Shown here: positions 10,074 to 62,800 of the stretch, one piece after another | Numbering within the stretch: the first letter of the stretch is position 1 | How the letters are laid out: each line of letters opens with the position of its first letter | Source of the DNA: Strigamia acuminata | Taxonomy: Eukaryota; Arthropoda; Chilopoda; Geophilomorpha; Linotaeniidae | DNA: 64,000 nucleotides | Direction: 5' to 3' | NCBI GenBank assembly: GCA_949358305.1 | Contig: OX442314.1 | Coordinates: 34,219,608-34,283,607 of the forward strand | Position numbers and translations under genes: made by a program | The notes under the pieces: model-generated | Databases searched by the model: none | Seen by the model: the letters and a program-made list of their open reading frames with translations, nothing else | What the model was told of the DNA's origin: nothing

Positions 10074-12344
10074 TTAAATGTAGCCAAACCTCTTGGATAT
10101 CTGAGTGTCACGCGCTGCGCACTCCAGCCACTTAAACACCTCCTTGCATAAGGTGGAGCTATTAATTAGCAAAGAACGAGTGGCTTCAGAGAGTCGCAAT
10201 CTTCGGTAAAAATGCCTTATTTTCCCGTATTCCAAATTTGGTGGCAATTGTGTTGCCTCATTCTCGGATTTTCCATCTTTCGACTCTACTGCGGACGATT
10301 CTTGCTCCGACGAGCCGATAGAATGTATTCCCGATTCTGGGGTGGTTGCCTTGGCGTGGTATAACGCGTACGCTTCTGCGGGCTTGTACGTCATGTACGA
10401 CCCACCTGTCGGAGTGGTGTTGGCAGGTTTGAACGGCTTCACTGGTCTCGGGTTGGGCGGGGCCCCCGCTGGTCTCCAGAGCGTCCATTCACCTCCTCCG
10501 AACGTTTGTGACTCGCGTCGTTGTTCCAGTTCTGCTTTTCTTTGCTCCCACTCTTTGCGCAATCTGTCCTTGCATCTCAGGACCGTTTCTCCATTAGCCA
10601 GAGTCTGATACACAAGATTGCTGTGCAGGAGGACTGGATCATACAGCACCGACTTCCAGTTAGCCAGCATTGGCTCTGGAATCCCCATTGGCGTAGTGTA
10701 AGGGATTGTGGAAGCGATTAGCGATGCTTCGTCGGTGAAGAAGACCCCTGGAAAGACAACTCTTTGTTGTGGCTTGATTGTCTTTTTCTGGAACTTGGCG
10801 AGCCACTTCTCAGTTTGATCCTCCAATGGCTGTTGGACAAACTCTCGTGCCAATCGCCTCATGTCATGAATCGATTCATTTACTTGCGCTGCTTGGTAAT
10901 TGTCAAAATTTGAAATGATCAACTTCTGCGAATTTAGCGGGTATCGCATGTAGTTTTTGCGAAGTTGATAAAAGTTTTTGTCAAAATCGGGTTCCGGCAA
11001 CATCGGCACGCTTCCGGGACAAGGGAGTGTTCCAACTTCTGGCACTGGCACCGAATGATCTATCAGTGGTATTGGATCAGTTACTGGTAGCGTATGTGGA
11101 TCCACAATTGGTGATTTCTTTTTTAACTTTCGTAATCTGTCCCTTTCCGCCGAACCAGCTGGTCGCAACATTCTTGGCTTGCTTTTCTTGGGCGCCTTCA
11201 CTTGGAGCGACATCAACTCTTTCAACTCAGACAGAGGTGGTGGAGGAGGCGGCGTCTCCAAATTGGAGGTTAAACTTGGCACCTCAAGCATTTGAGCGTT
11301 TTCAGGCGACGACATGCGTGGCGATGGTGTTTTCGGTCGTGCCTCTCGACGTGTTGGTGGTCTTTCTTCCTCGCCAGTCGATGAGGAATCCAATTCGTCG
11401 ATTTCATCAACCACCACGTATTCTTCCGGCCAGGAATCGTCGTACGATGCCAGCGGAATTATTGGCGCGTCCGGATCTGCTGTTCCTTTGATTTTAATCA
11501 ACAACGCTTCTTTGGCTGAGTGCGACACCGTAATTTCCCGATGAGAGTGGCTCCTACGCTTAGACCTTCGATGCTTTCGCGACTTTCTTGGTGGCGGTGA
11601 TCGTCGTGGTCTTTCTTCCCACTCAATTGGCGAATGGCGACTTGCAGTTTGGCGTCGTTCTCTAGACTGTTGTCGACGTCTTTCTCTTGATGGGCTTCTC
11701 CTTGATGGATCCTGACGTCGTTCTCCTGACGGATCTCGGCTTCTTGACCCCGCAGCTTCCGGGACATTACGTCCGCCTCGTCGATGAAAATTGGCTTTTA
11801 TCGAAAATTTGTTCCCGACCGCTCCAGTTAGGTAGAGCTGATGCATTTGTGTTTGGGTTTGACCAAAATGATCAGGTCTCCCCATGGCTGGAGGGAATCC
11901 TTCCTCTTCAACTTTCGCCAAAAACTCCTGGTGTCGGACCAAATAGGTCGCTGCGACATCGTCTGCCGTACTGCGTATACGTTCCATCACTTCCTTCGCG
12001 AATTCCAGTCTATCAGTAGCGGGGTCGCAAAAAACGGTGTAGTCCTGCGCCTCCTCGACAATCATCGGAAATTCATCTTCTAGAAGTGAGTTGAAAATTG
12101 GGCCATAAGGATCTTCTTCCTCCGATATTACTGCCCTCAACGCTTCGGCGTCCGCCGTGTTGCCTGAACAGATGCGATTTGTCGTCCCCCAATATCTTCT
12201 TAATTGGTTTGTGAGCCACTTGCGAACATCCCACGCACTGTAGCCCATTGGTTCAAAAACACCTCGCATCTTCTCCGGTATCTTGCCTCGGTAAATGTTC
12301 AGTTTCATCATGGCCGTTGGTGGAATACGATCCCATGACATCAT
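10074..12344 (-). CDS. ORF3 of element 1: env-position protein, Arg/Ser-rich, unknown function
   Basis: A 756-residue frame lies between pol and the 3' LTR, the place where retroviruses keep env. It starts MMSW at 12344, 12 nt behind a splice acceptor (TTATTTTATTAG). I see no signal peptide, no membrane-spanning segment, no furin-like site and few cysteines, so it does not look like an envelope. Residues about 1-200 are mixed and possibly folded. Residues about 205-275 are rich in SR/RD/RR repeats, followed by an acidic stretch (YVVVDEIDELDSS) and a proline-rich run (about 367-373). The C-terminal third is basic/aromatic with WTLWRPAG and Pro-rich patches. RS-rich regions are known from nuclear and RNA-binding proteins; nuclear or RNA-handling function is an inference. 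I know no named family for it. Confidence 0.85.
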   Translation of the reverse strand: MMSWDRIPPTAMMKLNIYRGKIPEKMRGVFEPMGYSAWDVRKWLTNQLRRYWGTTNRICSGNTADAEALRAVISEEEDPYGPIFNSLLEDEFPMIVEEAQDYTVFCDPATDRLEFAKEVMERIRSTADDVAATYLVRHQEFLAKVEEEGFPPAMGRPDHFGQTQTQMHQLYLTGAVGNKFSIKANFHRRGGRNVPEAAGSRSRDPSGERRQDPSRRSPSRERRRQQSRERRQTASRHSPIEWEERPRRSPPPRKSRKHRRSKRRSHSHREITVSHSAKEALLIKIKGTADPDAPIIPLASYDDSWPEEYVVVDEIDELDSSSTGEEERPPTRREARPKTPSPRMSSPENAQMLEVPSLTSNLETPPPPPPLSELKELMSLQVKAPKKSKPRMLRPAGSAERDRLRKLKKKSPIVDPHTLPVTDPIPLIDHSVPVPEVGTLPCPGSVPMLPEPDFDKNFYQLRKNYMRYPLNSQKLIISNFDNYQAAQVNESIHDMRRLAREFVQQPLEDQTEKWLAKFQKKTIKPQQRVVFPGVFFTDEASLIASTIPYTTPMGIPEPMLANWKSVLYDPVLLHSNLVYQTLANGETVLRCKDRLRKEWEQRKAELEQRRESQTFGGGEWTLWRPAGAPPNPRPVKPFKPANTTPTGGSYMTYKPAEAYALYHAKATTPESGIHSIGSSEQESSAVESKDGKSENEATQLPPNLEYGKIRHFYRRLRLSEATRSLLINSSTLCKEVFKWLECAARDTQISKRFGYI

Positions 12345-12355
12345 GGCTAGCTTGG

Positions 12356-12358
12356 TCT
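12356..12358 (-). promoter_or_regulatory. splice acceptor in front of ORF3, element 1
   Basis: Read on the minus strand, a T-rich run ends TTTTATTAG and the ORF3 ATG follows after 12 nt. The position just before ORF3 argues for a spliced subgenomic mRNA. The matching donor in the leader or gag has not been identified. Confidence 0.6.
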
Positions 12359-13304
12359 AATAAAATAATTTTATCAATCAAACTGTCAATTTCCAATAAT
12401 TTCTGCGTATGTGACATTAATTTTTTAGAGTGAGCGATAAAGTGTCGCTTTTACTTGTATTTCGGGTCGCTAGATGGCGTCCCCTCTGCTTGTGTTTATG
12501 GAGTTAAACAATTTTGACAATTTCTGTCTTTCAAATTTTAGTTTTTGATTCGGACAATTGCAAATCTTTTTTAACTTTATTATCCACTCTATTATTTCTG
12601 TCATACGCAACCATTGCTTTTGTTCTATGTGTATGTCAATGTTCGCTTTTCGTAATCTTTTGCCATTTTGGTTCTGATTATTGACTCAAGATGGCGTCCG
12701 TCTTTTTGAATTTCTCTTCGATTCCCGTAATCGTACTTAATTTTTGGGAATATTTTCAATTAAACGTATCAAATTTCCTCTTGAATATGAATTATCTTAT
12801 CATTTATTCATTTTTTGACAAAGTTTCAGACAGTATTTTCCTACTTTTCATTGACTAGCGAATTTTTTGATTTTTCATTCATTATGAATTCTCTTATTTT
12901 CGTAGTCAAACATTGACATTCACATTTATATGAATAAAAGCTTTCTTTAAAACTTATTCTTTATCTATCCAATTGATTGAATTTCGATTTTTAACTACCT
13001 CGTTCAGAATTTTCTGCAAGTTTTCATCAACTTCGTCTGCTTGACGTTCTCGCGACATCGTTCCGGTTTTTTCGGCTCCTTCGTCCGTGTCTAGTTGTGG
13101 TTTCTCCGCTCCAATTGTGGCTAGTCGCCAGTGAAGAATATCCAATTTTGTTTTGTTTTATCAAATATTCACGGAGCTTTAACAGTTCACACTTATTGTT
13201 GTGGTTAGGTGTTTCGAACTACAGCTGTTCCCTTCGGCGACCAATCACAATCGAGCAATGACGTCGTCCATTTCCGGACTTCCGAGCGACGTCTTATTCT
13301 ATTT
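12359..13304. other. pol-ORF3 spacer of element 1
   Basis: About 950 bp of AT-rich sequence with no supported gene. A 63-codon minus-strand frame (12954-13145) has no domain that I recognise. CGCTAGATGGCGTCC at about 12468 resembles the CTAGATGGCGC motif seen in the LTRs of elements 2 and 3. Confidence 0.5.
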
Positions 13305-16300
13305 TTAGAGGTAATCCGGAGGCTTTAACTTCGATCTGTCTCGAAGTGGATATTGTTTAAAAGCCTTTTTCTTTTCACGACAATTCAATTCTTGATATTT
13401 CTTTCTAATTTCGACTTTCTTTTCCACTCTCTTTCCCCTCTTTTTGGAAAAAGAAGCATTTTGCTTTTGATTTCCAAAAACGTCATTTTCTGGCGAAATT
13501 AGTGGAATGTCTGTCTCTGTGTCCTCTGAACTTTCTGCGTCATATTTTTCTGCAAGTTCTTGTGCAGCTTCTGCACCTTGTAAATCCTCGACACTTTGCG
13601 CACTGGTTTGTGCATTTTCTTTGTGTTGAACGTTTTCTGGACGTTCATTATTTTGGGTGTCGTCTGCATTTTTTGCATTCGCAATTTCTTGCGTTTCTAT
13701 GACAACAGTTTCTGGATTGAAATCAAACTCAAAATCTGGTAAACTTTGCAAATTTTCGACAGTTTGCATTTCTGATTGCAGTTGAGTTTCTTGTGCATTT
13801 TTTGACGTTTGCACATTTTCTGCGACTACCGTACTTGGCACATTTTCTGCCTCTTCCACTACTTCTGAATCGTCCCTTCTTGCTGGAATGTCATCAAATA
13901 AGGTGTTTATCACCTCGGCATTGGGGTTACTTTTAGTTTGACCTTTTAACCATATCTCTTGGTTAAATTCAGGGAAGTAGGGTGACAACTCGGATTTGTG
14001 AATTGAGTTGAAGATGCGGTTGTCTTTTACTCGACGCAATCTGGCCGCTCCACCCTGATGTATTTGGGTAATGACGTAGGGGCCAGTTCGCTTGTCCGCA
14101 ATGCTTGCAGAAATACCTGCTGAGGCCTTGGAGAGTGCATGATTTTCTCTCCACACAAGGTCATTAATTCTGAAGTTTTCAAATTTTGCGTCATCTTGGT
14201 GACTGCGCACTCTCTCTCTCAAATCCACAATATGCGCCATCATGTGGTGGTACGTGTCGCTGATTATTCTTTGCAATCGCTGGACATATATGTGGGGCTG
14301 TTTTGGGTCAATTCGAAGAATCCCATCAAGGACTCTTGGGTCCCAAGGAATACGAAGTTCTCTGCCGCAGTTGAGATAGGCAGGGGAGTATCCTCGACCC
14401 CTTGACTCAGTGGACCTGATGCTGAACGCTATTTCTCTTAAATATTCGTCCCAGCGGCGGTGCAGGTCTGTGAAAATGGCAATGACATATTTGATGTCCC
14501 TGTTGAGCCTCTCGACTGGATTGGCTTGCGGATGATACGGCGAAGTGAATTTTGGGATGATTTTGAAACGTTTGCAAAACTCCTTGTAAATTCGGGCTTT
14601 AAACTGTGGTCCATTGTCGGATATTATTTTTAGAGGAAATCCCCAGTCCATGGACGTGTCGTACACACAATCCGAGATGATTTGGGCAGTGGGGTCCTCC
14701 AACGGATACAATTTCGGCCAATGAGTTGCAACATCCAAAATAACCAAAATATAGTTGTTGCCTTCGATCGTCCTTGGTTTTGGGCCTGTCAAATCGATGC
14801 TCAGGCACTCGAACGGTGCATAAGGCCCAATTTCAGCTGGCTCAACTTTAGTTTTTGGTCGTGGCTTGCACGCCTGACATCTGACACAGTGCTTGATGAA
14901 TTTTGCAGTGTCCCTTTTCATGCCGTCCCAAACGTAAATGCAGCGCATCCGGTAAAGCGTTCTTGCGATACCGCTATGGCTCGCCAATGGGTGGCCGTGC
15001 ATTAACCAAAGTACTCGAAATCTCAACGACTTTGGTACCACGACTTTTAGTGCACTATTATCCTCGCCTAGCTCGTCGGAAATCGTTGGTTGATACCGCA
15101 TAAGCAGATCTTCCTCGAGGATATGTCTGGTTGCTAATACTTTGAAATTTCTTCTTTGAAGGCGAGTTGTGACATGTGGTGGGAATTGCTGTGTTTCCAG
15201 ATAGAAGCGGATGATTTGACAATGTTTGTCTGCCTTTTGCTCGGCTATAAATTCCTCGCGAGTAGGTGGAGTGCAATTTAATTGCTCTGTCACTTTGAGG
15301 ATGAAGGCATTTGCCATCGCATTGTCGGATTTTGGCATGTATCGCCATTCTTCCTCCTCGCGTATTTTTTGCTTCGTCTCTGCCGTTGGTGCAACATACA
15401 AATTGCACCAATAAGCGACCATTGGATCTTCCGGGGCTTTCGGCGTAGGCAGCTGGTTCCAATTCTTAATTTCCCAAGAATGGACCTCTGTCGGCCAATA
15501 ACGTGTATCACCGTCAGCTTCTCCGCATTCATCTTCACCACTTGTCAAATCTGTTGGCGCACGCGACAATGCATCAGCAAGCACATTGGTTGGACCCTTG
15601 ACGTACTGGATTTTAAAGCTATACGACATGAGTTCCATTTGCCATCTGGCAAGACGACCAGTGGGCTCATCCAATCCCATGAGCCATTTCAAGGCCTGAT
15701 GGTCAGTCTGTACAGTGAAATGGGTGAATTCCAGATATTCTCGGAATTTTCGTAGCGCCCAAATGACCGCCAGACATTCGAGGTCTGTGACGCTGTAATT
15801 CAGTTCTGCTGCCTGCAGGCTGCGACTAGCATATACGCAAGGGACCTCGAGTTCTTGCCCGTTGACCATGTTCTTTTGCATTAAGGCCGCTCCGAGCCCT
15901 TTTTTGCTTGCGTCGGTGTGGACAATAAATGGACGGGTTAAGTCTGGCAACGCCATTGTTTCTGAGTCAGTGAGTAATTTTTTGACTTCATCAAACGCTC
16001 GTTGGTGGTCTCCTGTCCACACGAAATCAATGCCCTTTTTCAAGAGCGGACGCAGGGGCTCGGCCACAGTGGCCAAATCCTTCAAAAGTCTGTGAAAAAA
16101 GTTCACCATTCCAAGAAAGCGCTGCAGCTCGGTGAGATTGGTTGGCGCTGGAAACTTAGTAATGGCGTCCACTTTTTTCGGATCTGCACTTACACCGTTG
16201 ACTCCCAAATTATAGCCTAAAAATTTTAGCTCTTTGCGACAAAATTTTGACTTTTCAGGATTTACGTGCAAGCCAGCTCTTTCTAATTTAGATAAGACGT

Positions 16301-18128
16301 CGTCTACATGACGCATGTGCTCTTCATATGTTTTCGATACAATGACGATGTCATCCAAGTACGCCCAGGCGTACTTACGATATGCATCGCCGAGCACTTT
16401 TTCGATTAGGCGCTGGAATGTCGTGGGCGCGTTCACAAGCCCAAATGGCATGACATTAAACATTAGGCGCCCAATCGGGCTCCAAAACGCCGTCTTTGGT
16501 CTATCTTCTGGGCGCAACTCAATCTGCCAGTAACCCTTGGTCAGATCTATTGTCGTCACCCAGTTGAACTCTCCTAGTTCTCGCAGAATCTCCGTGATCG
16601 TGGGCATTTGGGGCGGATCATATAAAGTGTGCTCATTGATCGGCCGATAGTCGATACACAATCGGGGATCTGATCCAGTTTTTGACACTAGTACGATCCG
16701 CGCAGCATAATCTCCTTCCGCATCCGACACAAAACCTTTGTCTTTGAACTCTTGACAGAGCTGGCGCAAAATTTCGCGTTTCTGCGGATTCCAGCTTCGA
16801 AATGGCACTCTAATAGGCTTTTTTGTGTCCAACTCGATTGTATGCTGCAAGACATGTGTTTTCCCTGGCGTTTTGGTGAGAATTTTTTCATGCTTTCTAA
16901 GCACTGATTCTAACTGAAGAGCCTCTGTTAGTTGAAGTTTGGCTTCTTCCACCAAGTTGTCTACGCCGTTGTCCATTCTCAATCTTGCATTGAAAGCATT
17001 GTAACATGTTTCTTTTGCAAAAGTTTTGAACGTTGATTCTGGTTGCTCTAACGTTTTTTCGAGTTTGTCCAGCACGTACTGCGGAACATATGGAGTTGGT
17101 ACTTCCAAAGTGGTCACGAAATTCCACTTTCCGCTGAGGGGATTTGGCTGGATTCTCATTCTTTTCATGACATCGTTCCCCATGAGCATGAAATGCATTT
17201 CATGCGGCAGCACCAAAAAATAGTGTAACATCATGCCGTGTGTCCATCGGAACAGTATTCGAATTGAACCGATTGGTTGAACTTTTTTATCTGCCGTATT
17301 TATGGCCATGTTAGGCCCAACTTTGGTAATCAAATCGTCGATTCCCATCGCTCTTACTAACGGCAGCGACACACAACTTCTGTTTGCACCGGAGTCTAAT
17401 GTTGCAGCGATGCTTCCGCTCTCAGTTAGGATGTCCATTGTTGTCATTCCTCCTAATTGTTCGTCGTCGGGGATCAAAGCATTGAACACTCGTATTCTTT
17501 GGCTCTCTTCAGGTTGCAGTTTTGGAAGTTCGTAAAGTAATGGATCCCACACAATCGGTTCCACCGGTGTGTTCATCATCCACGCCGCCTCTGAAGGGTC
17601 ATTCTCGTATGAATGTTTTACATTTGCCCAAAAAATTGTCGCCTCATTTTCTTCATCTAATCCCACCTCCTTCAATGCTTGTGAGATTTCATTCACAAAA
17701 TATGTGTTGTCGACGTTTTTAATTTCCTCACTTTCTGGAATTGTTTTTAATTCTTGTGTTGGAAATTGTAATTCGACAATTTTGCCGTCTTTAGGTTTGC
17801 AAATCACTTCGTCTTGAGCAGGTTGCATTGTCCCTATGGCTTCTGGAGGTGTGAACACACAAGGAATTATTTTCCGTGCAAGGCGAACATTTTCAATCAC
17901 ATCTTTCTTTTCAATTTTAGGAGAAGCTAATTCTGGTGGCGGAAATCTGATGGAAACTATTTCCCCGCCTATGATTTCACAAATCATTTCTCCTTTTCTT
18001 TTCCCCGTCTCTGGATCAATAGAGGGTAACACTTCTTTTACTTCTGCAGTTGTGTCTTCACTTTCCTGCAATTCTTCCGATTTTTTTGATGGCGCGGGCT
18101 CCTGATTTACTGGTCCCGCGCTCGCAAG
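13305..18128 (-). CDS. pol: Pol polyprotein of element 1 (protease, RT, RNase H, integrase)
   Basis: The frame is entered from gag by a minus-one shift at 18128; without it the first usable start would be a TTG at 18071. In order it shows: an aspartic protease with LDSGANRS (DSG instead of the more common DTG); a reverse transcriptase with IDYRPIN and the catalytic YLDD; RNase H beginning FIVHTDASKKGLGA; an integrase zinc domain with H-H-C-C (HPLASHSG...CVRCQAC); the D,D,E core (SIDLTGPKP, ISDNGPQF, NPVERLNRD); and a C-terminal GPY/F-type module (RTGPYVITQI). Integrase after RNase H defines Ty3/Gypsy. The 300-residue tail rich in Asn, Gln and Glu is unusual. No internal stop, so it may be functional; only gag is broken. 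Confidence 0.93.
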   Translation of the reverse strand, partial: LASAGPVNQEPAPSKKSEELQESEDTTAEVKEVLPSIDPETGKRKGEMICEIIGGEIVSIRFPPPELASPKIEKKDVIENVRLARKIIPCVFTPPEAIGTMQPAQDEVICKPKDGKIVELQFPTQELKTIPESEEIKNVDNTYFVNEISQALKEVGLDEENEATIFWANVKHSYENDPSEAAWMMNTPVEPIVWDPLLYELPKLQPEESQRIRVFNALIPDDEQLGGMTTMDILTESGSIAATLDSGANRSCVSLPLVRAMGIDDLITKVGPNMAINTADKKVQPIGSIRILFRWTHGMMLHYFLVLPHEMHFMLMGNDVMKRMRIQPNPLSGKWNFVTTLEVPTPYVPQYVLDKLEKTLEQPESTFKTFAKETCYNAFNARLRMDNGVDNLVEEAKLQLTEALQLESVLRKHEKILTKTPGKTHVLQHTIELDTKKPIRVPFRSWNPQKREILRQLCQEFKDKGFVSDAEGDYAARIVLVSKTGSDPRLCIDYRPINEHTLYDPPQMPTITEILRELGEFNWVTTIDLTKGYWQIELRPEDRPKTAFWSPIGRLMFNVMPFGLVNAPTTFQRLIEKVLGDAYRKYAWAYLDDIVIVSKTYEEHMRHVDDVLSKLERAGLHVNPEKSKFCRKELKFLGYNLGVNGVSADPKKVDAITKFPAPTNLTELQRFLGMVNFFHRLLKDLATVAEPLRPLLKKGIDFVWTGDHQRAFDEVKKLLTDSETMALPDLTRPFIVHTDASKKGLGAALMQKNMVNGQELEVPCVYASRSLQAAELNYSVTDLECLAVIWALRKFREYLEFTHFTVQTDHQALKWLMGLDEPTGRLARWQMELMSYSFKIQYVKGPTNVLADALSRAPTDLTSGEDECGEADGDTRYWPTEVHSWEIKNWNQLPTPKAPEDPMVAYWCNLYVAPTAETKQKIREEEEWRYMPKSDNAMANAFILKVTEQLNCTPPTREEFIAEQKADKHCQIIRFYLETQQFPPHVTTRLQRRNFKVLATRHILEEDLLMRYQPTISDELGEDNSALKVVVPKSLRFRVLWLMHGHPLASHSGIARTLYRMRCIYVWDGMKRDTAKFIKHCVRCQACKPRPKTKVEPAEIGPYAPFECLSIDLTGPKPRTIEGNNYILVILDVATHWPKLYPLEDPTAQIISDCVYDTSMDWGFPLKIISDNGPQFKARIYKEFCKRFKIIPKFTSPYHPQANPVERLNRDIKYVIAIFTDLHRRWDEYLREIAFSIRSTESRGRGYSPAYLNCGRELRIPWDPRVLDGILRIDPKQPHIYVQRLQRIISDTYHHMMAHIVDLRERVRSHQDDAKFENFRINDLVWRENHALSKASAGISASIADKRTGPYVITQIHQGGAARLRRVKDNRIFNSIHKSELSPYFPEFNQEIWLKGQTKSNPNAEVINTLFDDIPARRDDSEVVEEAENVPSTVVAENVQTSKNAQETQLQSEMQTVENLQSLPDFEFDFNPETVVIETQEIANAKNADDTQNNERPENVQHKENAQTSAQSVEDLQGAEAAQELAEKYDAESSEDTETDIPLISPENDVFGNQKQNASFSKKRGKRVEKKVEIRKKYQELNCREKKKAFKQYPLRDRSKLKPPDYL

Positions 18129-20884
18129 TTTTTTTGCACGGCTTCTGTGAGGACTTCCACCAACTTTTCAATGTCCATTTTTGGTGAAGGCTGCTTTTTT
18201 GGTTGTGGGCACTGTCTTGCCCAATGTCCTAGTGCGCCGCAATTATGACAAGGTGAATTATCAGGCGTCATTCTTGGTGTAGTAGCTGTTTCTACACTTC
18301 CTTCACTTTTGGCTGATGCAGTCGTAGCTTGACTGTTGCTTTCAGCTTTTCCAGTTTCCTGTGATGAATTTTTCGATGGAAACTCGAGTGAAAAACTTTT
18401 GGGCGCTTGATTTTGCCCATCTTTGGCGTCACTAGTTGTTGATATCTTTGGCTGCATAGGCGGCTTGTACTTTGCAGTTGTCGCATTATTTTTAGCGAAA
18501 TACGCATTTGTGGCCTCAACCAAAGTTTCAATATGTTGATCGGTTAATTCCATAGAGATTATTTGGCTATTTGCCGAATCTCCCTGGTCATCAACTTCCT
18601 GTGCCCATCTAGCTGTGGGTCTAGTTGGAATTTTTGGAGGAGGGTGAGGAGTTGGTTCATTGTCTTTATTGCAATGAAATGTGACTTCCTTGCGGGGCAT
18701 GGTGAACAGTGATCGAGGTTGCATCACTTTTGTACCTCCTCTAGCAAAGTTTGCTTGACGTCGCAATAACTCCTCTTGTCCCCTTTGCTCCTCCGGCGGC
18801 AAATCTTTGATGTAACGATCATCGATGTACATCTGATTTGTTCTCATAAATTCAGCCAATTTCTCAAAAGAGTTCGCCAAGGGCGCTTTGACCATTGACA
18901 ACACTCTCTCTGAGAATTCCGTTAAACCTCGACGGAATTGGCGGTCAGCTGAAAAGTCATCAACATTGTATGGTAATTGATCAAGTAATTCCTCCGTTCT
19001 TCGTAAATACGAGCGGAGATCTTCACCTAACATTTGTTTCAAGTTATCCCAATTATGGTATAAAGTCGCATTCGACTCTCCGTATTCCTTCATAAAAGCG
19101 CGCACAAATTCGTTCCATGATGCAAATGAGCGACCATAGAACCATTTTGCCGCACCCCCGGTTAGAATTTTAGGGATAATTTTATCTAGTGTGGTTCTCG
19201 GGTCAATGCCGTGACTTCTTGCAATTTGCATTACGTCATCAAAAAATTGAGTTCCGGCTTGCCAAGTTCCATCAAACGGATCGGGTGTTATTCTATCCCA
19301 TTTTATTTGACTTGGGTCAGTGAATGTGTGTGACCAATTTCCAGCACAATATTTTCTAATTCTTTTTTGCAAAACTTCTTCCATCTCTTGAGCTTTGGAT
19401 GGAATTCTTGCTAAACGTTCGTCAATTTGACTGTTAATGAATTCTCGCCACTGAGTCGGGCTCATTTGTGGCGGGTTGCCATCACCAGCAGGTATTCCAC
19501 GTTCATCTGAACGATATTCGGATCTTTGTTGACGTTGTCCGAAATTTCGTGAGTCATTTCCTTCATTTGGTCGGAAATGTTCCGAATTTGAATATTTTCG
19601 TTCGTCTCTTTCATTTCGTGTGCCTCCTGGTGGTGGACTAGTGTAATCTCTTTGCCACTCATTTCGACGAGAATGGTCTCTGTCCTGGTGAGAGTCACCT
19701 CTGTGACGTGACCCATCTCTTTGCCGTGATCGATCTCTGTCGTGCGAATCGTCTTCTTGACGTGAGTCGCCCGCATAGTAACGTTGATCATAATTTTGAT
19801 AACGTTGGTCCTCATATTGGTAACGTGAGTCCCTTTCTTGCGGATTCCCCCGTGATGACAAATATTGATCATTTCTTTGACGTGAGACTTCATCATAACG
19901 TCTGTCTCGATCATCATAATGACGATTTCCTTCTGAAAATTCGTGTGTAGGGACTTCTTGATCGCCTTGTGAAGGATAACGCTCATTTTTTGGAGCAGTG
20001 TTAACTTTTTCTTTCCATTCTTTCGATACTGGAACATTGTGATAAACGTCCTGCCCCTGTGAGGTCACCCGACCTTGATCAGTGTGACGTCTTCCTTCAT
20101 TTTGATGTGAAAGATAACGTTCATCTACATCTTGATTTGGCGCAAAAGAATTTGCTGTCGCGCCTTGATCTTGTTTTCTATCGTCTTTATTTTTTAATTT
20201 GCTGGAATCATTTTCCCAAGGGCGAAAGGTTTTGTTGGCGTTCGAATCTTTTGATTGTTCAAAATTTGATGCACCAGCTTGGTGTTGATCATTATTTCCT
20301 GGCCAAACACCTGCGTACACATCACGTGAACGTTCTTTTTGTGCCCTCGTCGCTGGAATTGTGACGATTTCCGGTTGCAAAGTAACGTCTATTGTCTTTG
20401 TTCTGTGTTGAGTGGTCTGTCCTTGACTGTCAGGACAATGTTGGGCACTCCACTGGTCAATGACTTCGAATAAATTCCTAGTTGGTGACGATAGCATTCT
20501 TTTGCTTGCTGAATCTCCTTCAGCACCTTCTCTCCCCCTTTTGAACGAAGTTCCAAAAGAATCAGTCTTTTTCTGCCCAACTTCCGTCGGACTAGCGGTC
20601 CTTGTGGGCCCCGCAGCTCTCGGATAATTGACGTGGGCGAGATACTTCATATCTTCTAACTCCTTGCGCATCCGCTCGGCATCTTCTTGCGCTTGCAGAG
20701 TTGCTTGACGAAGACGTACATTTTCATCTTGAACTGATGTCTCCATTGCTTTTTCTCTTGCAAATAAAGCTTGCTGCCGAGTGTCCAAGCGCACTTTAAA
20801 AGCTTCCATTTGTTCTTTCTCTTGTTGTAAACGATTTTCTTTCTGTTTCGTAACTAGCTCCAATTCCAATTTGGAATTTTTGAA
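18107..20884 (-). CDS. gag: Gag of element 1, main part after an in-frame stop
   Basis: About 920 residues. It opens with a coiled coil (LVTKQKENRLQQEKEQMEAF and on), then a long Arg/Asp/Gln/Ser-rich disordered part, then the retrotransposon gag (capsid-like) region around WDRITPDPFDGTW and KWFYGRSFASWNEFVRAF, and near the C-terminus one zinc knuckle of the form CHNCGALGHWARQC. It ends LRARDQ at a TAA, 18 nt after the slippery site. The reading frame is the same as that of 20885-21496, with a TAA between them, so the two are one gag gene interrupted by a stop. Gag forms the particle and binds the element RNA. Confidence 0.88.
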   Translation of the reverse strand, partial: FKNSKLELELVTKQKENRLQQEKEQMEAFKVRLDTRQQALFAREKAMETSVQDENVRLRQATLQAQEDAERMRKELEDMKYLAHVNYPRAAGPTRTASPTEVGQKKTDSFGTSFKRGREGAEGDSASKRMLSSPTRNLFEVIDQWSAQHCPDSQGQTTQHRTKTIDVTLQPEIVTIPATRAQKERSRDVYAGVWPGNNDQHQAGASNFEQSKDSNANKTFRPWENDSSKLKNKDDRKQDQGATANSFAPNQDVDERYLSHQNEGRRHTDQGRVTSQGQDVYHNVPVSKEWKEKVNTAPKNERYPSQGDQEVPTHEFSEGNRHYDDRDRRYDEVSRQRNDQYLSSRGNPQERDSRYQYEDQRYQNYDQRYYAGDSRQEDDSHDRDRSRQRDGSRHRGDSHQDRDHSRRNEWQRDYTSPPPGGTRNERDERKYSNSEHFRPNEGNDSRNFGQRQQRSEYRSDERGIPAGDGNPPQMSPTQWREFINSQIDERLARIPSKAQEMEEVLQKRIRKYCAGNWSHTFTDPSQIKWDRITPDPFDGTWQAGTQFFDDVMQIARSHGIDPRTTLDKIIPKILTGGAAKWFYGRSFASWNEFVRAFMKEYGESNATLYHNWDNLKQMLGEDLRSYLRRTEELLDQLPYNVDDFSADRQFRRGLTEFSERVLSMVKAPLANSFEKLAEFMRTNQMYIDDRYIKDLPPEEQRGQEELLRRQANFARGGTKVMQPRSLFTMPRKEVTFHCNKDNEPTPHPPPKIPTRPTARWAQEVDDQGDSANSQIISMELTDQHIETLVEATNAYFAKNNATTAKYKPPMQPKISTTSDAKDGQNQAPKSFSLEFPSKNSSQETGKAESNSQATTASAKSEGSVETATTPRMTPDNSPCHNCGALGHWARQCPQPKKQPSPKMDIEKLVEVLTEAVQKNLRARDQ
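18128..18134 (-). promoter_or_regulatory. minus-one ribosomal frameshift site, element 1
   Basis: In the gag frame the minus strand reads CAA AAA AAC, giving the canonical heptamer A AAA AAC. The minus-one frame continues straight into pol with no stop, and the gag stop lies 18 nt downstream. A seventh A precedes the heptamer. I did not fold a downstream pseudoknot. Confidence 0.85.
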
Positions 20885-21496
20885 TTAACATTCCTCCAAC
20901 CTCATTTGTTTCATGAGTTGGTATTCTTCTGAGCCTGCTATTCGAATGTCGTCTTCCCGTGCTTGTATTGCAGCTACTCGCTCTGCTGCTTCTTCATCCG
21001 TAATTGGGCCGCCCTCTAGATATTTCAGCTGCGCTTCCGTCAAACTGGTAGCTGCTGCTTGCATTAGATCGTGAATGCGTTGGCGGACCTTTTCCAATCT
21101 TTCCTGGGTCGGAGTACTGGTCCCAGATGTGACAGCGCTGATGTCCCTACTCCTGGACGCGGCAATACGGTGCGCTTTTAACAACTGACCCCTTTTCTTG
21201 GCCACTACTAGCAACTCTTCGCGTGATAAATGCGATAAGTCGGCCTTCAAACTGGCCGTGGAACTTGCGTTCTCTGCGACGGACGTGGGAGAGGGTGGAC
21301 GTGACACAAGTTGGCGTTCAACGTCACTTGTCGTAGGCCAAAAGTCTTGACTGAGCGGATTTGGCGTTCTTCCGCCGTCGGCTGACCGTGACGACGATCG
21401 TGAGCGTGTGTCGTGATGGTCTTCCGTTGCTCCGTCCGTTCGTCTGGCTTTACGCGTCGGGCCCTTTCCTCTTCTACTGTCTCTTTCTTGATCCAT
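20885..21496 (-). CDS. gag: Gag of element 1, N-terminal part before an in-frame TAA
   Basis: It starts at an ATG with good context (TGACCATGG, 21496) and runs 203 residues: a basic start, a Ser-rich stretch, then charged helices (SREELLVVAKKRGQLLK; TEAQLKYLEGG; ERVAAIQAREDD). It ends MRLEEC then TAA. Translation in the same frame resumes at once into the coiled coil of the main gag part, so the helix appears to run across the stop. It is either a nonsense mutation in this copy or a read-through codon. Confidence 0.75.
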   Translation of the reverse strand: MDQERDSRRGKGPTRKARRTDGATEDHHDTRSRSSSRSADGGRTPNPLSQDFWPTTSDVERQLVSRPPSPTSVAENASSTASLKADLSHLSREELLVVAKKRGQLLKAHRIAASRSRDISAVTSGTSTPTQERLEKVRQRIHDLMQAAATSLTEAQLKYLEGGPITDEEAAERVAAIQAREDDIRIAGSEEYQLMKQMRLEEC

Positions 21497-21616
21497 GGTC
21501 AATTAAAAAGAGTGAAGACAGAAACAGACTTAATACTAACAAGATTTTATACACAAAAAAAAATTCTGGAGGTCCCTAGAATTTTACACAAATGCAAATT
21601 CACTTAAGGTTCAAAA

Positions 21617-21629
21617 GGACGGGCCCCCA
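21617..21629 (-). promoter_or_regulatory. primer-binding site of element 1 (tRNA-Pro-like)
   Basis: Read on the minus strand, TGGGGGCCCGTCC lies 2 nt after the 5' LTR. It differs at one position from the common tRNA-Pro primer-binding sequence TGGGGGCTCGTCC. The tRNA assignment is from memory. Confidence 0.6.
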
Positions 21630-21631
21630 AG

Positions 21632-42392: not shown

Positions 42393-42395
42393 TCT
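42393..42395 (-). promoter_or_regulatory. splice acceptor in front of ORF3, element 2
   Basis: Minus strand TTATTCTATTTTAG then A and the ATG. It decides the ORF3 start (MGSNKHH) and parallels the acceptors of elements 1 and 3. Confidence 0.65.
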
Positions 42396-51050: not shown

Positions 51051-51052
51051 CT

Positions 51053-52624
51053 TGTGACGATTCTACTTTTGGCTGAATAATTAGCCATTACAAGAGATAA
51101 ATCGGTTTAGACAAGACATTTCTACAACTAGAAATAACCTAACCGAGATAAGCTACGGAAGTCTGTACAACGTGAATATGTGATCAAATATAACAACTTA
51201 CGATTTTGTGTGATATAATTACATGTTTATTAACATTACAACTGGAGTTGGGGTTCTGGATAAGTGTAACGGCGGCTACACTGGTTGAGGTTCCGGGCGA
51301 TGCTGTTCGAGTGGTGCGGCTGACTTTGCGGCATCGTCACAGTTAGCGCTACGGAGACGTATTCGGTCCCGCAGCTCGGATATCTATTAATACGAAGAGT
51401 CCTTCGTATTCGGTCGGGAATATTCATTAGAATATTCCATATTTAATTCAACAAAACAATATTAGTGTAATATAACAAATGAATTGTTATATTGTTATTC
51501 TATGGGCGGGGACAGTCACGACAGTCGAGGGGACCATCGCGGGAGTTGTTGAAGCTCCATCCGCCAGCATGCCTTACGACGACAAGATCTCGTGATCAGG
51601 CGCCGGGTATTTGTTTTCTGCGACGAGTCGCTTTCAGTGGTACCAACCACTGGGTAAACAGTTCCTGGGGGACTACCAGATCGGCATTACCAATACCCGA
51701 GTGTTTGTTTAGCGCAAGGTATGAATGCAATTGCTCACGGGCCACCAACCCGGTGCGTCGCCTGTGAATAAGGCTTTTACCGACCTCGGACAAGTCTTGC
51801 CCACTTAACGGAAGGGCCAATGCACTGCATCGGAACCCTGGGAAAACAGTTTGCCCATATTTGTTAAACGAGTTCGACTTCTCGTATATGTGCTCTGGCA
51901 GAGCATCTGACCTATGATCGGAGAATCTCGCAAATAGATGCGACTATCACCGATCATATAATTTGACATTTGTTTAACGGGTTAGTCATTCCCGTGCATG
52001 AGCGATATACTAAGCCACCGTATGAAATCCTACTGTCCCTTAGAACAGCTGGCTAACACTACGGGGCCATTTCATGTGTGAAACATGTCTATTACCGGAG
52101 TTAGCCTTCCCGAAAGGGCCCTACAACAAGCAATAACAAACTAGTAATAATACTATTTGTGGAGAGCTGAGGAGGCCTGATGTGTCGATAAAGAAAGTGA
52201 GATCCAACGATAACAACTTATCAATACAAACAATATAAACATATTCAGAATCAAGCCAAGGGGGGAGCTCGTGAGAACCAGAGCTTATATGGTTCTAGAG
52301 AACAATCAGATTGGCGACAGCCAATCAGGTGTCTGAATCGATGGATTCGTGGATCACTAGTCCGGACCTAATATTGAACTGGGTCCAGAAGAGTCCGATT
52401 GGTCATCTTCAACAGGTAAGTAAAACCGGATATTGATTCGATAGAATCAATATCTCAAGTAAATAATACTTAGCTTAGTCCAATAAAATACTGTATATTT
52501 TATTCGCAACGTTATATTAATTCTTTAATATAACTCGCAACTTTATCGAGTTTAAACTGCGCGCGTTAGACAAACAGCGCCATCTAGTGTGAACATTGGA
52601 TAATACGGTTTTATAACCGTCACA
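51053..52624 (-). repeat. 5' LTR of element 2
   Basis: 1572 bp; every open frame and landmark has its counterpart at the same offset in 38607-40178. Confidence 0.95.
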
Positions 52625-57964: not shown

Positions 57965-58776
57965 TTAGTTCTCGCCTTCATTCCCACCACCGCCATCATC
58001 ATTATCCACAAGTGCATCATGGGAAGGGTCTTCAAATTCTATCGTCAGCATCAGACCGTGCTTTTCAGCCATTAGCTTTAGAGCACCAACGTCAAAATAT
58101 TGTCGTCTCATCTCATCAATTTGCAAAATCACTATCAACTCCTTCAAAGAATCGATTTTGAACAAATCCTCGATCCCCGAAGGTCCCATCAAGTTGCACC
58201 CATCAATTTCCAATCTTCTGAGTTTCCGGACTGGACTGGCAGATCTGAACAAACGAGGAAATAAATACTTAGCGGCACGGGCCACCGACGAATTACCGGA
58301 ATCCCGCGCGGCCAGTCGAGCGCTCTTCTTTGCCATCACGTCGGCCAACTCGCGCGCAATTTTATTACTGAAACCGGAGCAACGGTACAGACTGAGTTTC
58401 TCCAGGATGGGACACATCGCCAACAACTCGAACAAATAACCGGACGTAACCCAACGGTCGTTGGGATCGTACATAGAAATTTCATACAACTCATCAAACC
58501 GCAAATCCCGCAAACAGGCTCGATCGAACGTGTCATTTTCCTCCGCTATATTCAAGTCCGAGTCGTAGCGCATGTCGACAATCAAGATATGCAAATGCTT
58601 GAATTTCGTCAAACTCTGCAGCATTTTTAGGGTGAAAATATTCGGCGTGATGTGGATTATGGTGACGTTAGGACACACGAGCGCAGCTGTCTCCAGTTCG
58701 TCCTCAATGTCGTCGTCAGGGTACACCAACATCAACATTCTCAGTTTGTATTGCGGCGGTGGCGCGCCGATCGGCT
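57965..58776 (-). CDS. leucine-rich-repeat protein, C-terminal part; exon cut by element 3
   Basis: An open frame enters from 58776 (PPPQYKLRMLMLVYPDDDIED) and runs about 270 residues to a stop at 57965. It has irregular LRRs (LQSLTKFKHLHILIVDM, LEKLSLYRCSGFSNKIAREL, LRRLEIDGCNLMGPSGIEDL) and an acidic Gly-rich tail. LRRs form curved protein-binding surfaces; no F-box is visible in this part. The paralogue at 54845-56941 has PLDSPPQQYNLKEL at the same place, so the coding frame should continue upstream, but the LTR of element 3 starts inside it. The rest of the gene would lie beyond 64000. The first ATG after the break is at 58738. Confidence 0.65.
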
Positions 58777-60534
58777 TGTGACGATTCTACTTTTGGCTGA
58801 TTTAATAGCCATTTAAGATAGATAATTAATCGGTTTAAACAAGACGTTGCTAGGAGTAGCAACAACCTAACCGAGATAAGCTTACGGAAGTCCGTGTACA
58901 AATATGAATCAATGACTGAGCAGAAATAACTTACAGTTTTCTTGGTGTAACATAACATATTTATTACTGAATAATAACAATAACAAAGATGGGTTCTTGA
59001 CGCGTGTAAACGGGTGGCATCAACTGGTTGAGGATCCGGGCGAAGCCAGAGGAATACGGCTGACTTGCGGCATCGTCACAAATATCGCTACGGAGACGTA
59101 TTTGGTCCGCAGCTCGAGTATCTAAATATGCGAAGAGTCCTACGCATAAACAGGAATATTCGGCAGAATATTCCATTGTTTCAAATGAATAAAATGAAGT
59201 AATTAAAATAATACAACAAATGAATTGTTATATAAATATTAATTGGGCGGGGACCGTCACGACAATTGAGAGAACGTCGCGGGAGTTGTTGAGACTCCAT
59301 CCGCCAGCATGCCTTACGACGACAAGATCTCGTGATCAGGCGCCGAGTATTTAATTGTGTGCTTTAACTCGCTATCGGTGGTACCAACCACCAGGTAAAC
59401 ATTTCTATGGACTTACCGGGTTTAAAAGATATTGCCAATACAGGATTACCAAAGCCCGAGTAATTTGTTTAACACGATATATTTATATATCGTTCACGGG
59501 TTACTAACCCGGAGGGTACGATGGGGCGGGGACCGTCACGACGGTCGAGAGAACCATCGCGGGAGGATTTGACTCCTCCATCCGCCAGCATGCCTTACGA
59601 TGACGGGATCAGCGGATCGAGCACCGGGTAAAATATTAATCGGCCACTGCCGTTGGATTACCATTATCCAGGTAGTTGTTTCTCGCAACATCTTTAGATA
59701 TTACTCACGGGCTACCAACCCGGCGTGTCGCCTGTATATTAGGTCTTTACCGACTTTTAACGAGCGGAAGGACCAATCGTAGAAAGACGGGAACCTGCGT
59801 GGGCTGTTTACAACAACCATCCTGCAGCGGACTGTGGCCAGTTAGCCGAGGGACCTATTTTCATTTAGCAAGGTCGTACTGTATACGACCGTTATATTAA
59901 GCCACCGTACGAAGTCCTACAGTCCCGTAGAACAGCTGGCTAACGTTACGGGGCCATTTCATGCGAATGCATGTCTATTACCGGAGTTAGCCTTCCCGAA
60001 AAGGCCCTACAACAACAATAACAATCTAGTAATGAATACTAATTGTGGAGAGCTGAGGTGGCCTGATGTGTCGATAGAGAAAGTGAGATCAAACGATAAC
60101 AACAATTCAACTACAGACAGTATATTCATATTCAGTTATCAAGCCAAGCTTTTGGACGTGAGAAACTGATGCTTATATAGTTCTGTAGAACTACTAGATT
60201 GGCGACAGCCAATCAGCGTACGAATCGGCGGATTCGCGGGTCACTAGTCCGGACCTAATATATGACTATGTCCAGATGGGCCCAGTTGGGGTCCAGAAGG
60301 GTCCAATTGGTTCCCTTCGACAGGTGAGTAAAGTAGATATTGATTCGATAGAATCAACATCATCAAGTAATTAATACTTAATTTATATCGAATAAAATAG
60401 TTATATTTTATTCACCGTGTCTAAATAATTATTTATCACATTTTTTAGTCTTTAACCGAGTTTGAAATACGCGCGTTGGTTAAACAGCGCCATCTATGGT
60501 GAACATTGATAACTATCGATTTGTAATCATCACA
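58777..60534 (-). repeat. 3' LTR of element 3
   Basis: 1758 bp, about 190 bp longer than the element 2 LTR. It contains two copies of the GGGCGGGGACCGTCACGAC...CATCCGCCAGCATGCCTTAC module (59245-59352 and 59524-59630) where element 2 has one. ACAGCGCCATCTA lies at 60484-60496. Confidence 0.88.
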
Positions 60535-61273: not shown

Positions 61274-62794
61274 TTACTCCTTCTTTTCGACGTCAGTCGA
61301 ATCTTTTTCTTCCCTTTTCTCGACTTCAGCTGAAGTCAGAAAATCCGATTCTTCAGTCGCCTCTGTCGAGACGGCAGAAAATACAGCTTCTTCCGGCGCT
61401 TCGATTTCATCCGGACTCGGAGGCGGAAACGGCATGTCGTCGAGAAGCTCAGCCACGAAATCAACGACTGAAAGCAGCTCCTCGGCGTCCTCAAACTGCG
61501 CGTCGTCCGAAGTCTCAGACTTAGACGCTGGAGGGGCGCTAGACACGTCGGTTACGGCCGCTGGAGGATCCTCCACGGGTTTGGACGACGTTTCAACAGC
61601 CTGTTGAAGCTTACGAGCTCGCCCTCGTGCCAAGATGTTGGTTCGTTGAACCTTGGCAATTTCTCTCGCTCGGTCGAGCGTCAGACAGCCTCGCCCTCGC
61701 GACATCGCTCTTGGTCGAACGAATTCCTCCACGACCTCGCTTCCGGCGCTCTCGACGGCTTGGACAGTTTCAGTCGAAACTTCGGAGTCCTCGGACGGCG
61801 GCGGTGATTGTCGAAGGAGTTCGACTCTTACGCCGGCGTTGGCTTCAGCGCGGGCCCAGGTGAGGAAGCGCGGGTCGATGTAAACCGCTTCGCCGCGACT
61901 ATTCAAGAAAAGTCGGCACTTTGGGCAGTGAGCCCAACATCGCTTTTCGTTCGGCTTAATGCCTTTCACCACGTGGGGCTGAACCTCCTTGCGCCACGGC
62001 TCCGAACGCGGTCGCGTTTTCCTTCCACGGCAGTTTGGACAACGCATAAGCGAAGAACCTGCGGATGCACCGCAGCACCACCCACAGCCGACGCAAAATG
62101 GGCATATCGTCTCCGTGGCTTGGTCCGTCACGATGTTATCGTGAGGTATTCCAGCTGCCATGTCACGCTCGCACTGTTCTTTGCGCAGGCGGGCCTTCTC
62201 GTCCTTCTTTCGTGCCTTATTGGCCACTCGGTACTCGCGGTTGCGAGAAACAGGCTCCGAAAAACGCAGAGCGCCCGGTGGCGGCTCGTTCCATCCATAC
62301 TCTGATGCCGAGGATTCAGCACCGGCAGGGAGGTGCACAGCAGACGTTGATTGTCCCGTCACAGTCGGTGCAGCCGCATTTGACGTGTTGGCGATGGTGG
62401 GCGCTACGCTTGCAGTTGGCGGCCGAAATTCGGGCGAATGCGGAGCCAACGGGACGTTGACAACGTTCGCGGGCGGATACGCCACCTGGGCCAACGGGGC
62501 CAATTGCGCCGACTCATAAATAGTTGGCTGCGCAGAAGTGGATGGGGCCTGCATCATCGCATTTAAGTCGAGCGGAAATCCGTCCGGATGGACGCTCAGC
62601 CAATTTAGCGTTGCGAGTTGCAACGGCGTCAGGGTGTACATCGAGGCGGGCGCCGTCGGTATCGGTTGGGCCCTCATGTAAGCACGTTCCGCTGAACGGC
62701 GTTGCTCGTCACTAGACGAGGTGGACGAGCTGGACGAGCTTTCATGACGGTGTCGTCGATGACTCCGTTTTGAGCGATGTTTACCACTTCCCAT
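61274..62794 (-). CDS. ORF3 of element 3: env-position protein, homologue of element 2 ORF3
   Basis: 506 residues from the ATG at 62794, directly behind the acceptor TTTGCGTCTGCAG. It starts MGSGKHRSKRSHRRHRHESS, then poly-Ser and SSDEQRRSAER. The block from about residue 225 (HDNIVTDQATETICPFCVGC) to about 330 (CPKCR.FLNSRGEAVYIDP) is almost identical to element 2, including every cysteine, while the flanking linkers have changed heavily. The segment MSRGRGCLTLDRA near residue 385 is also kept. The pattern points to purifying selection on the zinc block. No membrane anchor is visible. Confidence 0.88.
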   Translation of the reverse strand: MGSGKHRSKRSHRRHRHESSSSSSTSSSDEQRRSAERAYMRAQPIPTAPASMYTLTPLQLATLNWLSVHPDGFPLDLNAMMQAPSTSAQPTIYESAQLAPLAQVAYPPANVVNVPLAPHSPEFRPPTASVAPTIANTSNAAAPTVTGQSTSAVHLPAGAESSASEYGWNEPPPGALRFSEPVSRNREYRVANKARKKDEKARLRKEQCERDMAAGIPHDNIVTDQATETICPFCVGCGWCCGASAGSSLMRCPNCRGRKTRPRSEPWRKEVQPHVVKGIKPNEKRCWAHCPKCRLFLNSRGEAVYIDPRFLTWARAEANAGVRVELLRQSPPPSEDSEVSTETVQAVESAGSEVVEEFVRPRAMSRGRGCLTLDRAREIAKVQRTNILARGRARKLQQAVETSSKPVEDPPAAVTDVSSAPPASKSETSDDAQFEDAEELLSVVDFVAELLDDMPFPPPSPDEIEAPEEAVFSAVSTEATEESDFLTSAEVEKREEKDSTDVEKKE

Positions 62795-62800
62795 CTGCAG
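62795..62800 (-). promoter_or_regulatory. splice acceptor in front of ORF3, element 3
   Basis: Minus strand ATTTATTTGCGTCTGCAG followed at once by the ATG. Confidence 0.68.

What the first reader, a model, noticed from the sequence alone, without database searches (positions are those of the whole stretch)
10074..62800. Three Ty3/Gypsy elements with an env-position ORF3 that is not an envelope and begins at a splice acceptor
Seen: in elements 1, 2 and 3 the frame between pol and the 3' LTR (10074-12344, 40899-42392, 61274-62794) starts 12, 1 and 0 nt behind TTTTATTAG, CTATTTTAG and GTCTGCAG. None shows a signal peptide, membrane anchor or cleavage site; all have Arg/Ser/His-rich stretches, and two have a Cys-rich zinc block. 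Known: retroviral and errantiviral env genes in this place are made from spliced RNA. Inference: a spliced accessory protein of nuclear or RNA-handling type has replaced or never been env in this lineage.
Basis: partly seen in the sequence, partly recalled or inferred. Interest (0 to 1): 0.82.

Follow-up and report, generated by a model that had tools for sequence, protein, structure and literature searches.

The report
Intron-bearing extra gene in retrotransposons
Jumping genes in this animal-like genome carry, where retroviruses keep their envelope gene, a conserved non-envelope gene with its own small intron and perhaps its own promoter.

Summary
In detail: three Ty3/gypsy elements carry a long frame between pol and the 3' LTR, without membrane segment, starting 0-12 nt behind a splice-acceptor-like AG. 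Element 1's ORF3 is unrelated to that of elements 2 and 3. Both types have many copies in the host genome (109 and 85 matching stretches, lower bounds); the el2/el3 type has dN/dS about 0.1.

Fitting donors are local, not in gag or leader. Element 1 has a 20-codon exon (13058-12999) and a 642-nt GT-AG intron (12998-12357); a 96% copy with gag, pol end and ORF3, and a degraded 86% copy, lack exactly that intron. Elements 2 and 3 have a constant GTAAGT donor and introns of about 605 nt, but 0 of 48 loci lack it.

Behind el1-type pol stands a block, CTCGGAA..GACGTCA..TTGG, found 30 times in the genome, all in such elements, followed by an ATG-free leader. This suggests an internal promoter; an acceptor beside it is not excluded.

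Best reading: a self-contained, spliced, probably nuclear regulatory gene, not env. No RNA, promoter or protein evidence exists here.

The parts
8595..22988 (-). Element 1: 5' LTR 21645-22988, 3' LTR 8595-9937 (99.0% identical)
18107..21502 (-). Element 1 gag frame, interrupted by one in-frame TAA (20885-20887)
   Evidence: a 99% copy elsewhere has an open 1131-aa frame
13305..18167 (-). Element 1 pol (PR-RT-RH-IN)
13241..13286 (-). Element 1 promoter-like block CTCGGAAG...GACGTCA...TGATTGG just behind the pol stop (ETS-, CRE-, CCAAT-like; labels recalled)
13059..13240 (-). Element 1 ORF3 5' leader, ATG-free; true 5' end unknown
12999..13058 (-). Element 1 ORF3 coding exon 1, 20 codons, phase-0 donor GAG|GTAGTT
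12357..12998 (-). Element 1 ORF3 intron, 642 nt, GT...TTTTATTAG; absent from copies L076 and L077
10074..12356 (-). Element 1 ORF3 exon 2 (760 codons, SR/basic stretches, conserved N- and C-terminal stretches)
38599..52624 (-). Element 2: 5' LTR 51046-52624, 3' LTR 38599-40178 (99.87%), flanking AAGT duplication
47668..49932 (-). Element 2 gag
43496..47680 (-). Element 2 pol
43382..43403 (-). Second polypurine-tract-like sequence behind pol, invariant in 35 distinct el2/el3-type sequences
42999..43188 (-). Element 2 ORF3 non-coding exon 1 window, ATG-free (start chosen at an invariant run; true 5' end unknown)
42394..42998 (-). Element 2 predicted intron, 605 nt, GTAAGTA...TATTTTAG
40899..42393 (-). 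Element 2 ORF3 exon 2; ATG at 42392, 497 codons, zinc-like Cys block
58775..60534 (-). Element 3 3' LTR (approximate ends)
63403..63586 (-). Element 3 ORF3 non-coding exon 1 window (approximate)
62795..63402 (-). Element 3 predicted intron, 608 nt, GTAAGTAG...CTGCAG
61274..62794 (-). Element 3 ORF3 exon 2, 506 codons, zinc-like Cys block

Best explanation
ORF3 is an accessory gene of its own inside these Ty3/gypsy elements. It sits in the env position but is not an envelope. Its mRNA starts just behind pol, most likely from an internal promoter (seen as a conserved motif block in element-1-type elements only), carries a short first exon (20 coding codons in element 1, non-coding in elements 2 and 3), loses a small intron of about 600 nt and then encodes a soluble basic-tract protein of about 500 to 780 aa. 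Shown by sequence: the conserved gene layout, coding selection (firm for the el2/el3 type), and exact intron absence in copies of the element-1 type. Inferred: the transcription start, splicing in elements 2 and 3, and the role. The most likely role is a nuclear regulator of the element's own RNA or transcription; Rev/CERV-like export of unspliced genomic RNA is slightly favoured over Tas-like transactivation, because the genomic RNA has to escape splicing of this very intron.
For: Copy L076 (96% identical; gag match, pol end and stop, ORF3 match; its LTRs were not examined) and the degraded copy L077 (85-86%) run from exon 1 straight into exon 2 where element 1 has 642 nt beginning GT and ending AG. 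L068/L078 shows the same join for another family. Two families have no ATG at the exon-2 start but a short ATG exon upstream. Six families have an exon 1 of 16-24 codons, starting M[SA], with a phase-0 GT donor (chosen by eye among the candidates listed). The leader has 0 ATG in 7 of 7 families, against 23.1 in mononucleotide shuffles and 9 on the reverse strand. The block occurs 30 times in the genome, the reversed pattern 0 times; I placed all 30 in such elements by hand. El2/el3 type: GTAAGT donor in 48 of 48 readable loci, 26 of 27 distinct first-exon windows ATG-free. dN/dS 0.12 between elements 2 and 3 (bootstrap 0.09-0.16), 0.10 and 0.08 within the two groups. No membrane segment; basic clusters in P0001 and P0002.
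Against: No RNA data. 0 of 48 el2/el3-type loci lack the intron. The promoter block is not found in elements 2 and 3, and their TATAAATA-like run lies inside the predicted intron. An AG 168-182 nt before the exon-1 ATG, just behind or at the block, recurs in 4 of 6 el1-type families, so an upstream acceptor fed by a leader donor is possible. NES-like motifs are not clearly more numerous than in shuffled sequence. Strong basic clusters are missing by my criterion in P0003 and in two of the five further el1-type sequences (L053, L055). Structure models were poor (pLDDT 38 and 42). The motif cores were chosen from the same sequences on which they were tested.
Confidence: 0.6

Rival explanations
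1. Classic env-type expression: the LTR promoter drives all RNA and a leader or gag donor is joined to an acceptor upstream of exon 1 (or straight to exon 2), with the small intron removed as a second step.
For: Usual route for retroviral env. The A. vaga paper says ORF3s in LTR retrotransposons are typically separate transcriptional units expressed from spliced messages (PMC5408684, passage). An AG at 173, 180, 182 and 168 nt before the exon-1 ATG recurs in W1, L080, L081 and L083. The gag- and pol-bearing intron-lacking copy suggests that the small intron can be removed from a long RNA.
Against: In the other two of six families the best AGs lie elsewhere. Another good-looking AG of element 1 is not an AG in its 96% copy. 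The leader starts next to a block of near-constant spacing with a palindromic core. Donors in leader or gag were not surveyed.
Confidence: 0.28
2. Elements 2 and 3 only: an unspliced internal message starts behind the TATAAATA-like run (42504-42514), and the AG before the ATG is incidental.
For: The run GTTATAAATAA is invariant in 35 distinct sequences about 115 nt before the ATG.
Against: That leader carries an out-of-frame ATG 20 nt before ORF3 in element 2 and a short upstream frame in element 3; splicing would remove both. The constant AG at the ATG and the constant GTAAGT donor would be unexplained.
Confidence: 0.15
3. Foamy-virus-like logic (about the role, compatible with the best explanation's layout): ORF3 is a transcriptional transactivator made early from the internal promoter, which then switches on the LTR.
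For: Same layout as an internal promoter with Tas downstream (PMC7390438, passages). The acidic-hydrophobic motif DFV[AD]xL..xPF is kept in 43 of 43 distinct open el2/el3-type frames. A CRE-like TGACGTC also occurs in the element-1 LTR.
Against: No DNA-binding domain recognised; SR/basic stretches suit RNA work as well.
Confidence: 0.3
4. ORF3 is a worn or unusual envelope or a chance host-gene fragment.
For: Position between pol and the 3' LTR.
Against: No hydrophobic segment, no profile match, coding selection, many diverged open copies.
Confidence: 0.03

Closest known systems
CERV of Cer1 (C. elegans Ty3/gypsy)
   Same: Non-envelope protein of a Ty3/gypsy element made from spliced RNA; nuclear; needed for export of unspliced genomic RNA; has a Cys-rich loop essential for function (PMC10309623: abstract and sections 9 and 15 read, other passages)
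   Different: CERV comes from five exons and exons 1-3 share the gag frame; here exon 1 lies behind pol. Sequence homology was not tested. The Cys block is present only in elements 2 and 3.
Foamy virus internal promoter with Tas
   Same: Second, internal promoter that drives a regulatory gene near the 3' end (PMC7390438, passages)
   Different: There the promoter lies inside env; here no env is seen, and ORF3 has its own intron. Activity untested here.
Grande gene23 / Retand antisense ORFs (plants)
   Same: Accessory gene between pol and 3' LTR; gene23 product nuclear, own promoter (PMC7264820 and PMC11963269, passages)
   Different: Antisense in plants; here sense and spliced.
ORF3s of bdelloid rotifer LTR elements
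   Same: Varied ORF3s in env position, said to be expressed from spliced messages (PMC5408684, start of abstract in a listing and passages)
   Different: From memory, not from a call: those described are enzymes, TM proteins or a viral fusion protein. No direct comparison was made.
sORF1/sORF2 of Drosophila MDG1-group elements
   Same: Non-env accessory ORFs of Ty3/gypsy elements; sORF1 protein is subnuclear (PMC11952523, passages)
   Different: Short, upstream of gag, no evidence of splicing there; sORF2 is a membrane protein.
Ogre (plant Ty3/gypsy)
   Same: Keeps an intron that is removed from only part of the transcripts (PMC6317226, passage)
   Different: [quoted passage not shown] here between pol and ORF3.

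Membership tests
Ty3/gypsy LTR retrotransposon | LTR pair; gag with CCHC; PR-RT-RNaseH-IN order | tested here: met
   (elements 1 and 2; element 3 truncated by the window)
Retroviral/errantiviral env | membrane anchor | tested here: not met
   hydropathy only
Retroviral/errantiviral env | signal peptide | not tested
   no signal-peptide program at hand; hydropathy shows no strongly hydrophobic stretch anywhere
Retroviral/errantiviral env | profile match to an envelope family | tested here: not met
CERV/Rev-like export factor | spliced message | tested here: inconclusive
   strong for element-1 type, inferred for elements 2 and 3; no RNA reads
CERV/Rev-like export factor | exons shared with gag | tested here: not met
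   exon 1 lies behind the pol stop; a further upstream exon is not excluded
CERV/Rev-like export factor | nuclear location and export of genomic RNA | not testable with these tools
   needs experiment
CERV/Rev-like export factor | sequence or fold homology to CERV | not tested
   CERV sequence was not fetched; models too poor
Foamy-virus-type internal promoter unit | promoter upstream of a 3' accessory gene | tested here: inconclusive
   conserved block and ATG-free leader in el1-type elements; activity not testable; not found in elements 2 and 3
DnaJ-type zinc finger (elements 2, 3) | profile score above cut-off | tested here: not met
   only Anti-TRAP at E 0.034 and 0.089, below cut-off
Single ORF3 family for all three elements | homology of element 1 ORF3 to elements 2/3 ORF3 | tested here: not met

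The most novel reading that the evidence does not exclude
Two unrelated accessory proteins in one group of animal-like Ty3/gypsy elements have converged on the same gene design: own promoter behind pol, short first exon, retained sense intron of about 600 nt, long soluble regulatory protein. The intron survives reverse transcription because ORF3 itself makes the genomic RNA leave the nucleus unspliced, so that the gene senses and controls its own splicing.
Probability: 0.25. Interest if true: 0.82.

Novelty: new variant of a known kind. Interest (0 to 1): 0.63.

Why it matters
Env-position ORFs that are not env are often left as 'unknown ORF3'. Here one becomes a defined gene with a promoter-like block, leader and exon-intron layout, in families so diverged that the constants stand out. 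It gives exact junction coordinates to test. It also poses a sharp question: how does an element that copies itself through RNA keep a sense-strand intron? A Rev- or Tas-like regulator in a Ty3/gypsy element, beside CERV, would suggest that such regulators arise repeatedly outside vertebrate retroviruses.

Tried and rejected
Protein searches of 5.8 billion sequences gave nothing for P0002, P0001 and the zinc region of P0002. The first two scored only the 7990 candidates sharing most words (low-complexity words probably crowded them), and the third had 135 candidates, so absence is not shown. Five viral-contig scans gave nothing. Structure models were too poor for any fold search; one of my two jobs went to a two-row alignment and the other to P0001 alone. 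Rfam reached no gathering score in the window. The SL1 search rang in no control genome, so trans-splicing to the acceptors is untested. Profile hits of A1 to CWC25 (E 0.035) and of A4 to a cyclo-ligase (E 0.61) are taken as chance or low complexity. N-myristoylation of MGSNKHHS was considered from memory and dropped (position 6 is His). Pyrimidine content did not separate the exon-2 acceptors from other AGs. NES-like counts were not clearly above shuffles. A leader-donor model was not excluded; donors in gag or leader were looked at by eye only. Window element 2 is also locus L001; where searches counted it twice I give the count without the duplicate.
Full report
WHAT IS THERE. The window holds three minus-strand LTR elements. 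Element 1 (8595-22988) and element 2 (38599-52624) have both LTRs, 99.0% and 99.87% identical; element 3 is cut by the window end. gag and pol of elements 1 and 2 match Ty3/gypsy-type profiles. Behind pol each has a long frame: 12356-10074, 42503-40899, 62836-61274. None has a membrane segment by hydropathy. Pfam gives nothing above cut-off for any of the three.

TWO ORF3 FAMILIES. ORF3 of elements 2 and 3 align at 69% identity with an almost invariant Cys block. ORF3 of element 1 has no detectable relation to them. In the 237.5-Mb genome that contains the window, P0002 has 85 matching stretches (81 candidates scored of 829) and P0001 has 109 (59 scored of 2477); stretches are not copies, since some copies match in pieces, and only scored candidates are listed. 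Besides close copies, el1-type matches run mostly from 29 to 59% identity; many lie in open frames of about 670-1090 aa, others in shorter fragments or with stops. Selection is clear for the el2/el3 type: element 2 against 3, dN 0.24 and dS 1.96, ratio about 0.12, bootstrap 2.5-97.5% 0.09-0.16 (the median came out undefined because dS saturates in some draws); within el2-type and el3-type copies 0.10 and 0.08 (17 distinct frames each, open ones only). For the el1 type synonymous sites are saturated, but third codon positions differ most in all 15 pairs of six sequences. Of 50 distinct el2/el3-type loci with the start motif, 43 are open for 480 codons or more (duplicate removed).

THE INTRON OF ELEMENT 1. 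In six first-sampled el1-type sequences (element 1 and L051-L055, taken by hand) an AG lies exactly 12 nt before the aligned start in five and 9 nt before in one; nearer AGs also exist in four. Two families, seen in L053, L055, L064-L067, L069 and L074, have no ATG there. Two relatives of element 1, L056/L076 (96%) and the degraded L057/L077 (85-86%), lack 642 nt that element 1 has between ...CTGAACGAG and ACCAAGCTAGCC. The extra stretch starts GTAGTT and ends TTTTATTAG. L076 belongs to a copy with gag, pol end and stop and ORF3; its LTRs were not examined. L068/L078 shows the same kind of join for another family whose relative L075/L079 has the acceptor. Of 26 copies inspected at this junction (picked from the matches), 23 have the acceptor and 3 the direct join (its patterns were written from these sequences). 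Donors were seen in six of the 23. In front of the intron lies a short exon with the start codon: MSRERQADEVDENLQKILNE at 13058-12999 in element 1; comparable exons of 16-24 codons, phase 0 before GT, in L080-L084, with introns of 146-869 nt. They were picked by eye from the ATG-to-GT candidates; the near-constant distance of 235-278 nt from the pol stop speaks for them. For L079 no such exon was found within the 1243 nt fetched. Gain in element 1 instead of loss in its relatives is unlikely, because the L051 family has acceptor, donor and alike intron letters at the same place; I did not build a tree.

THE BLOCK BEHIND POL. In all seven el1-type families examined a GACGTC core lies 187-236 nt before the exon-1 ATG, shortly after the pol stop. 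Cores like ACTCGGAAG, TGACGTCA and GTGATTGG occur with at most one mismatch in 6, 7 and 5 of 7 families within 120 nt of the stop, against dinucleotide-shuffle means of 0.2, 0.8 and 0.3 and maxima of 3, 5 and 3 in 500 rounds (the cores were chosen from these sequences). The pattern CTCGGAA-N6-24-GACGTCA-N8-18-TTGG occurs 30 times in the whole genome and its reversed control 0 times. Matching positions by hand, 27 of the 30 lie 0.3-1.2 kb in front of an ORF3 match, and the other 3 (C4:3247467, C6:3080660, C12:43768) lie about 5 kb behind a gag match. Between the core and the exon-1 ATG there is no ATG in 7 of 7 families; mononucleotide shuffles give 23.1, the reverse strand of the same stretches has 9, and the introns of six families have 4-16 each. 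That is the mark of a scanned 5' leader. ETS, CRE and CCAAT are names from memory; no motif library was used. I read the block as an internal promoter. Against this, an AG 168-182 nt before the ATG recurs in 4 of 6 families, so an acceptor there, fed by a leader donor, is not excluded.

ELEMENTS 2 AND 3. The AG at the ATG is kept in 29 of 29 el2-type and 21 of 21 el3-type loci (duplicate removed; L029 has no start motif), although its offset differs by one base between the types. A GTAAGT donor lies about 600 nt upstream in 48 of 48 loci where the stretch could be read (L030 and L049 dropped: block absent or not fetched). The 180-222 nt before it have no ATG in 26 of 27 distinct sequences, 2.1-3.7 expected each by mononucleotide shuffles (window start chosen at an invariant run). 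The predicted introns hold 3-11 ATGs, fewer than the 12-14 of shuffles. These are copies of two subfamilies, so effectively two observations. No copy lacks the intron (0 of 48). The case is good but weaker than for element 1, and the post-pol block of el1-type elements was not found here.

HOW IT MOST LIKELY WORKS. Shown by sequence: gene layout, selection, no membrane segment, exact intron absence in some copies. Inferred: an internal promoter starts the ORF3 message behind pol; the intron is spliced; the protein acts in the nucleus. The genomic RNA contains the same intron, and a gag- and pol-bearing copy without it suggests that it can be lost in one cycle, yet 23 of 26 el1-type copies keep the acceptor. 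So the genomic RNA must usually escape splicing, or intron-keeping copies are favoured. This is the setting in which CERV works for Cer1 (PMC10309623: abstract and sections 9 and 15 read). The layout with an internal promoter and a downstream regulator also resembles foamy virus Tas (PMC7390438, passages). I favour an RNA-export or splicing-control role slightly over transactivation, without direct evidence. The conserved DFV[AD]xL..xPF motif of elements 2 and 3 could serve either.

NOVELTY. Non-env ORF3s, spliced accessory genes, introns and accessory genes with own promoters are each known in LTR elements (Closest known systems). The combination, in sense orientation behind pol, was not met in the listings; these searches were few and the library lacks most subscription papers, so that is weak evidence. 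I rate it a new variant of a known kind. The host species was not identified.

Noticed in passing
window 20885-20887: gag of element 1 is split by one in-frame TAA; a 99% copy elsewhere in the genome has an open 1131-aa frame.
   Followed up: partly
window 43382-43403 and about 63770-63791: A second polypurine-tract-like CACCGGGGGACA directly behind pol resembles the 3' tract CACCGGGGGATG next to the LTR; invariant in 35 distinct copies.
   Followed up: partly
window 12497, 42556, 62957 (minus strand): AAACACAAG followed by GGGGA lies 153-164 nt before the ORF3 ATG in all three elements although ORF3 of element 1 is unrelated; function unknown.
   Followed up: partly
introns of W1, L080, L084; L078 before exon 1: GCCATCTAGNGG-like sites (0-2 mismatches), resembling a CTCF site from memory, recur between pol and ORF3; no chance expectation was computed.
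   Followed up: no
window 42504-42514 and element 3 counterpart: TATAAATA-like run invariant in el2/el3-type copies, inside the predicted intron.
   Followed up: partly
window 34959-38248: 187-bp tandem repeat in two blocks arranged as a 99% inverted repeat with arms of 1420 nt.
   Followed up: no
window 27000-31700 and 52900-55700: Repeated, partly broken copies of a RING/in-between-RING-like gene (RNF216-like from memory) with leucine-rich stretches.
   Followed up: no
window 4308-5123: Open frame with two zinc-finger-like units, recalling from memory the N-terminus of R2/NeSL-type retrotransposons.
   Followed up: no
behind the 5' LTRs of elements 1 and 2 (near 21630 and 51050, minus strand): Primer-binding-site-like stretches, tRNA-Gln-like in element 2 and tRNA-Pro-like in element 1; tRNA labels recalled.
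   Followed up: no
L030: One el2-type copy loses similarity upstream of about 42539, right behind the AAACACAAGGGGA motif.
   Followed up: no
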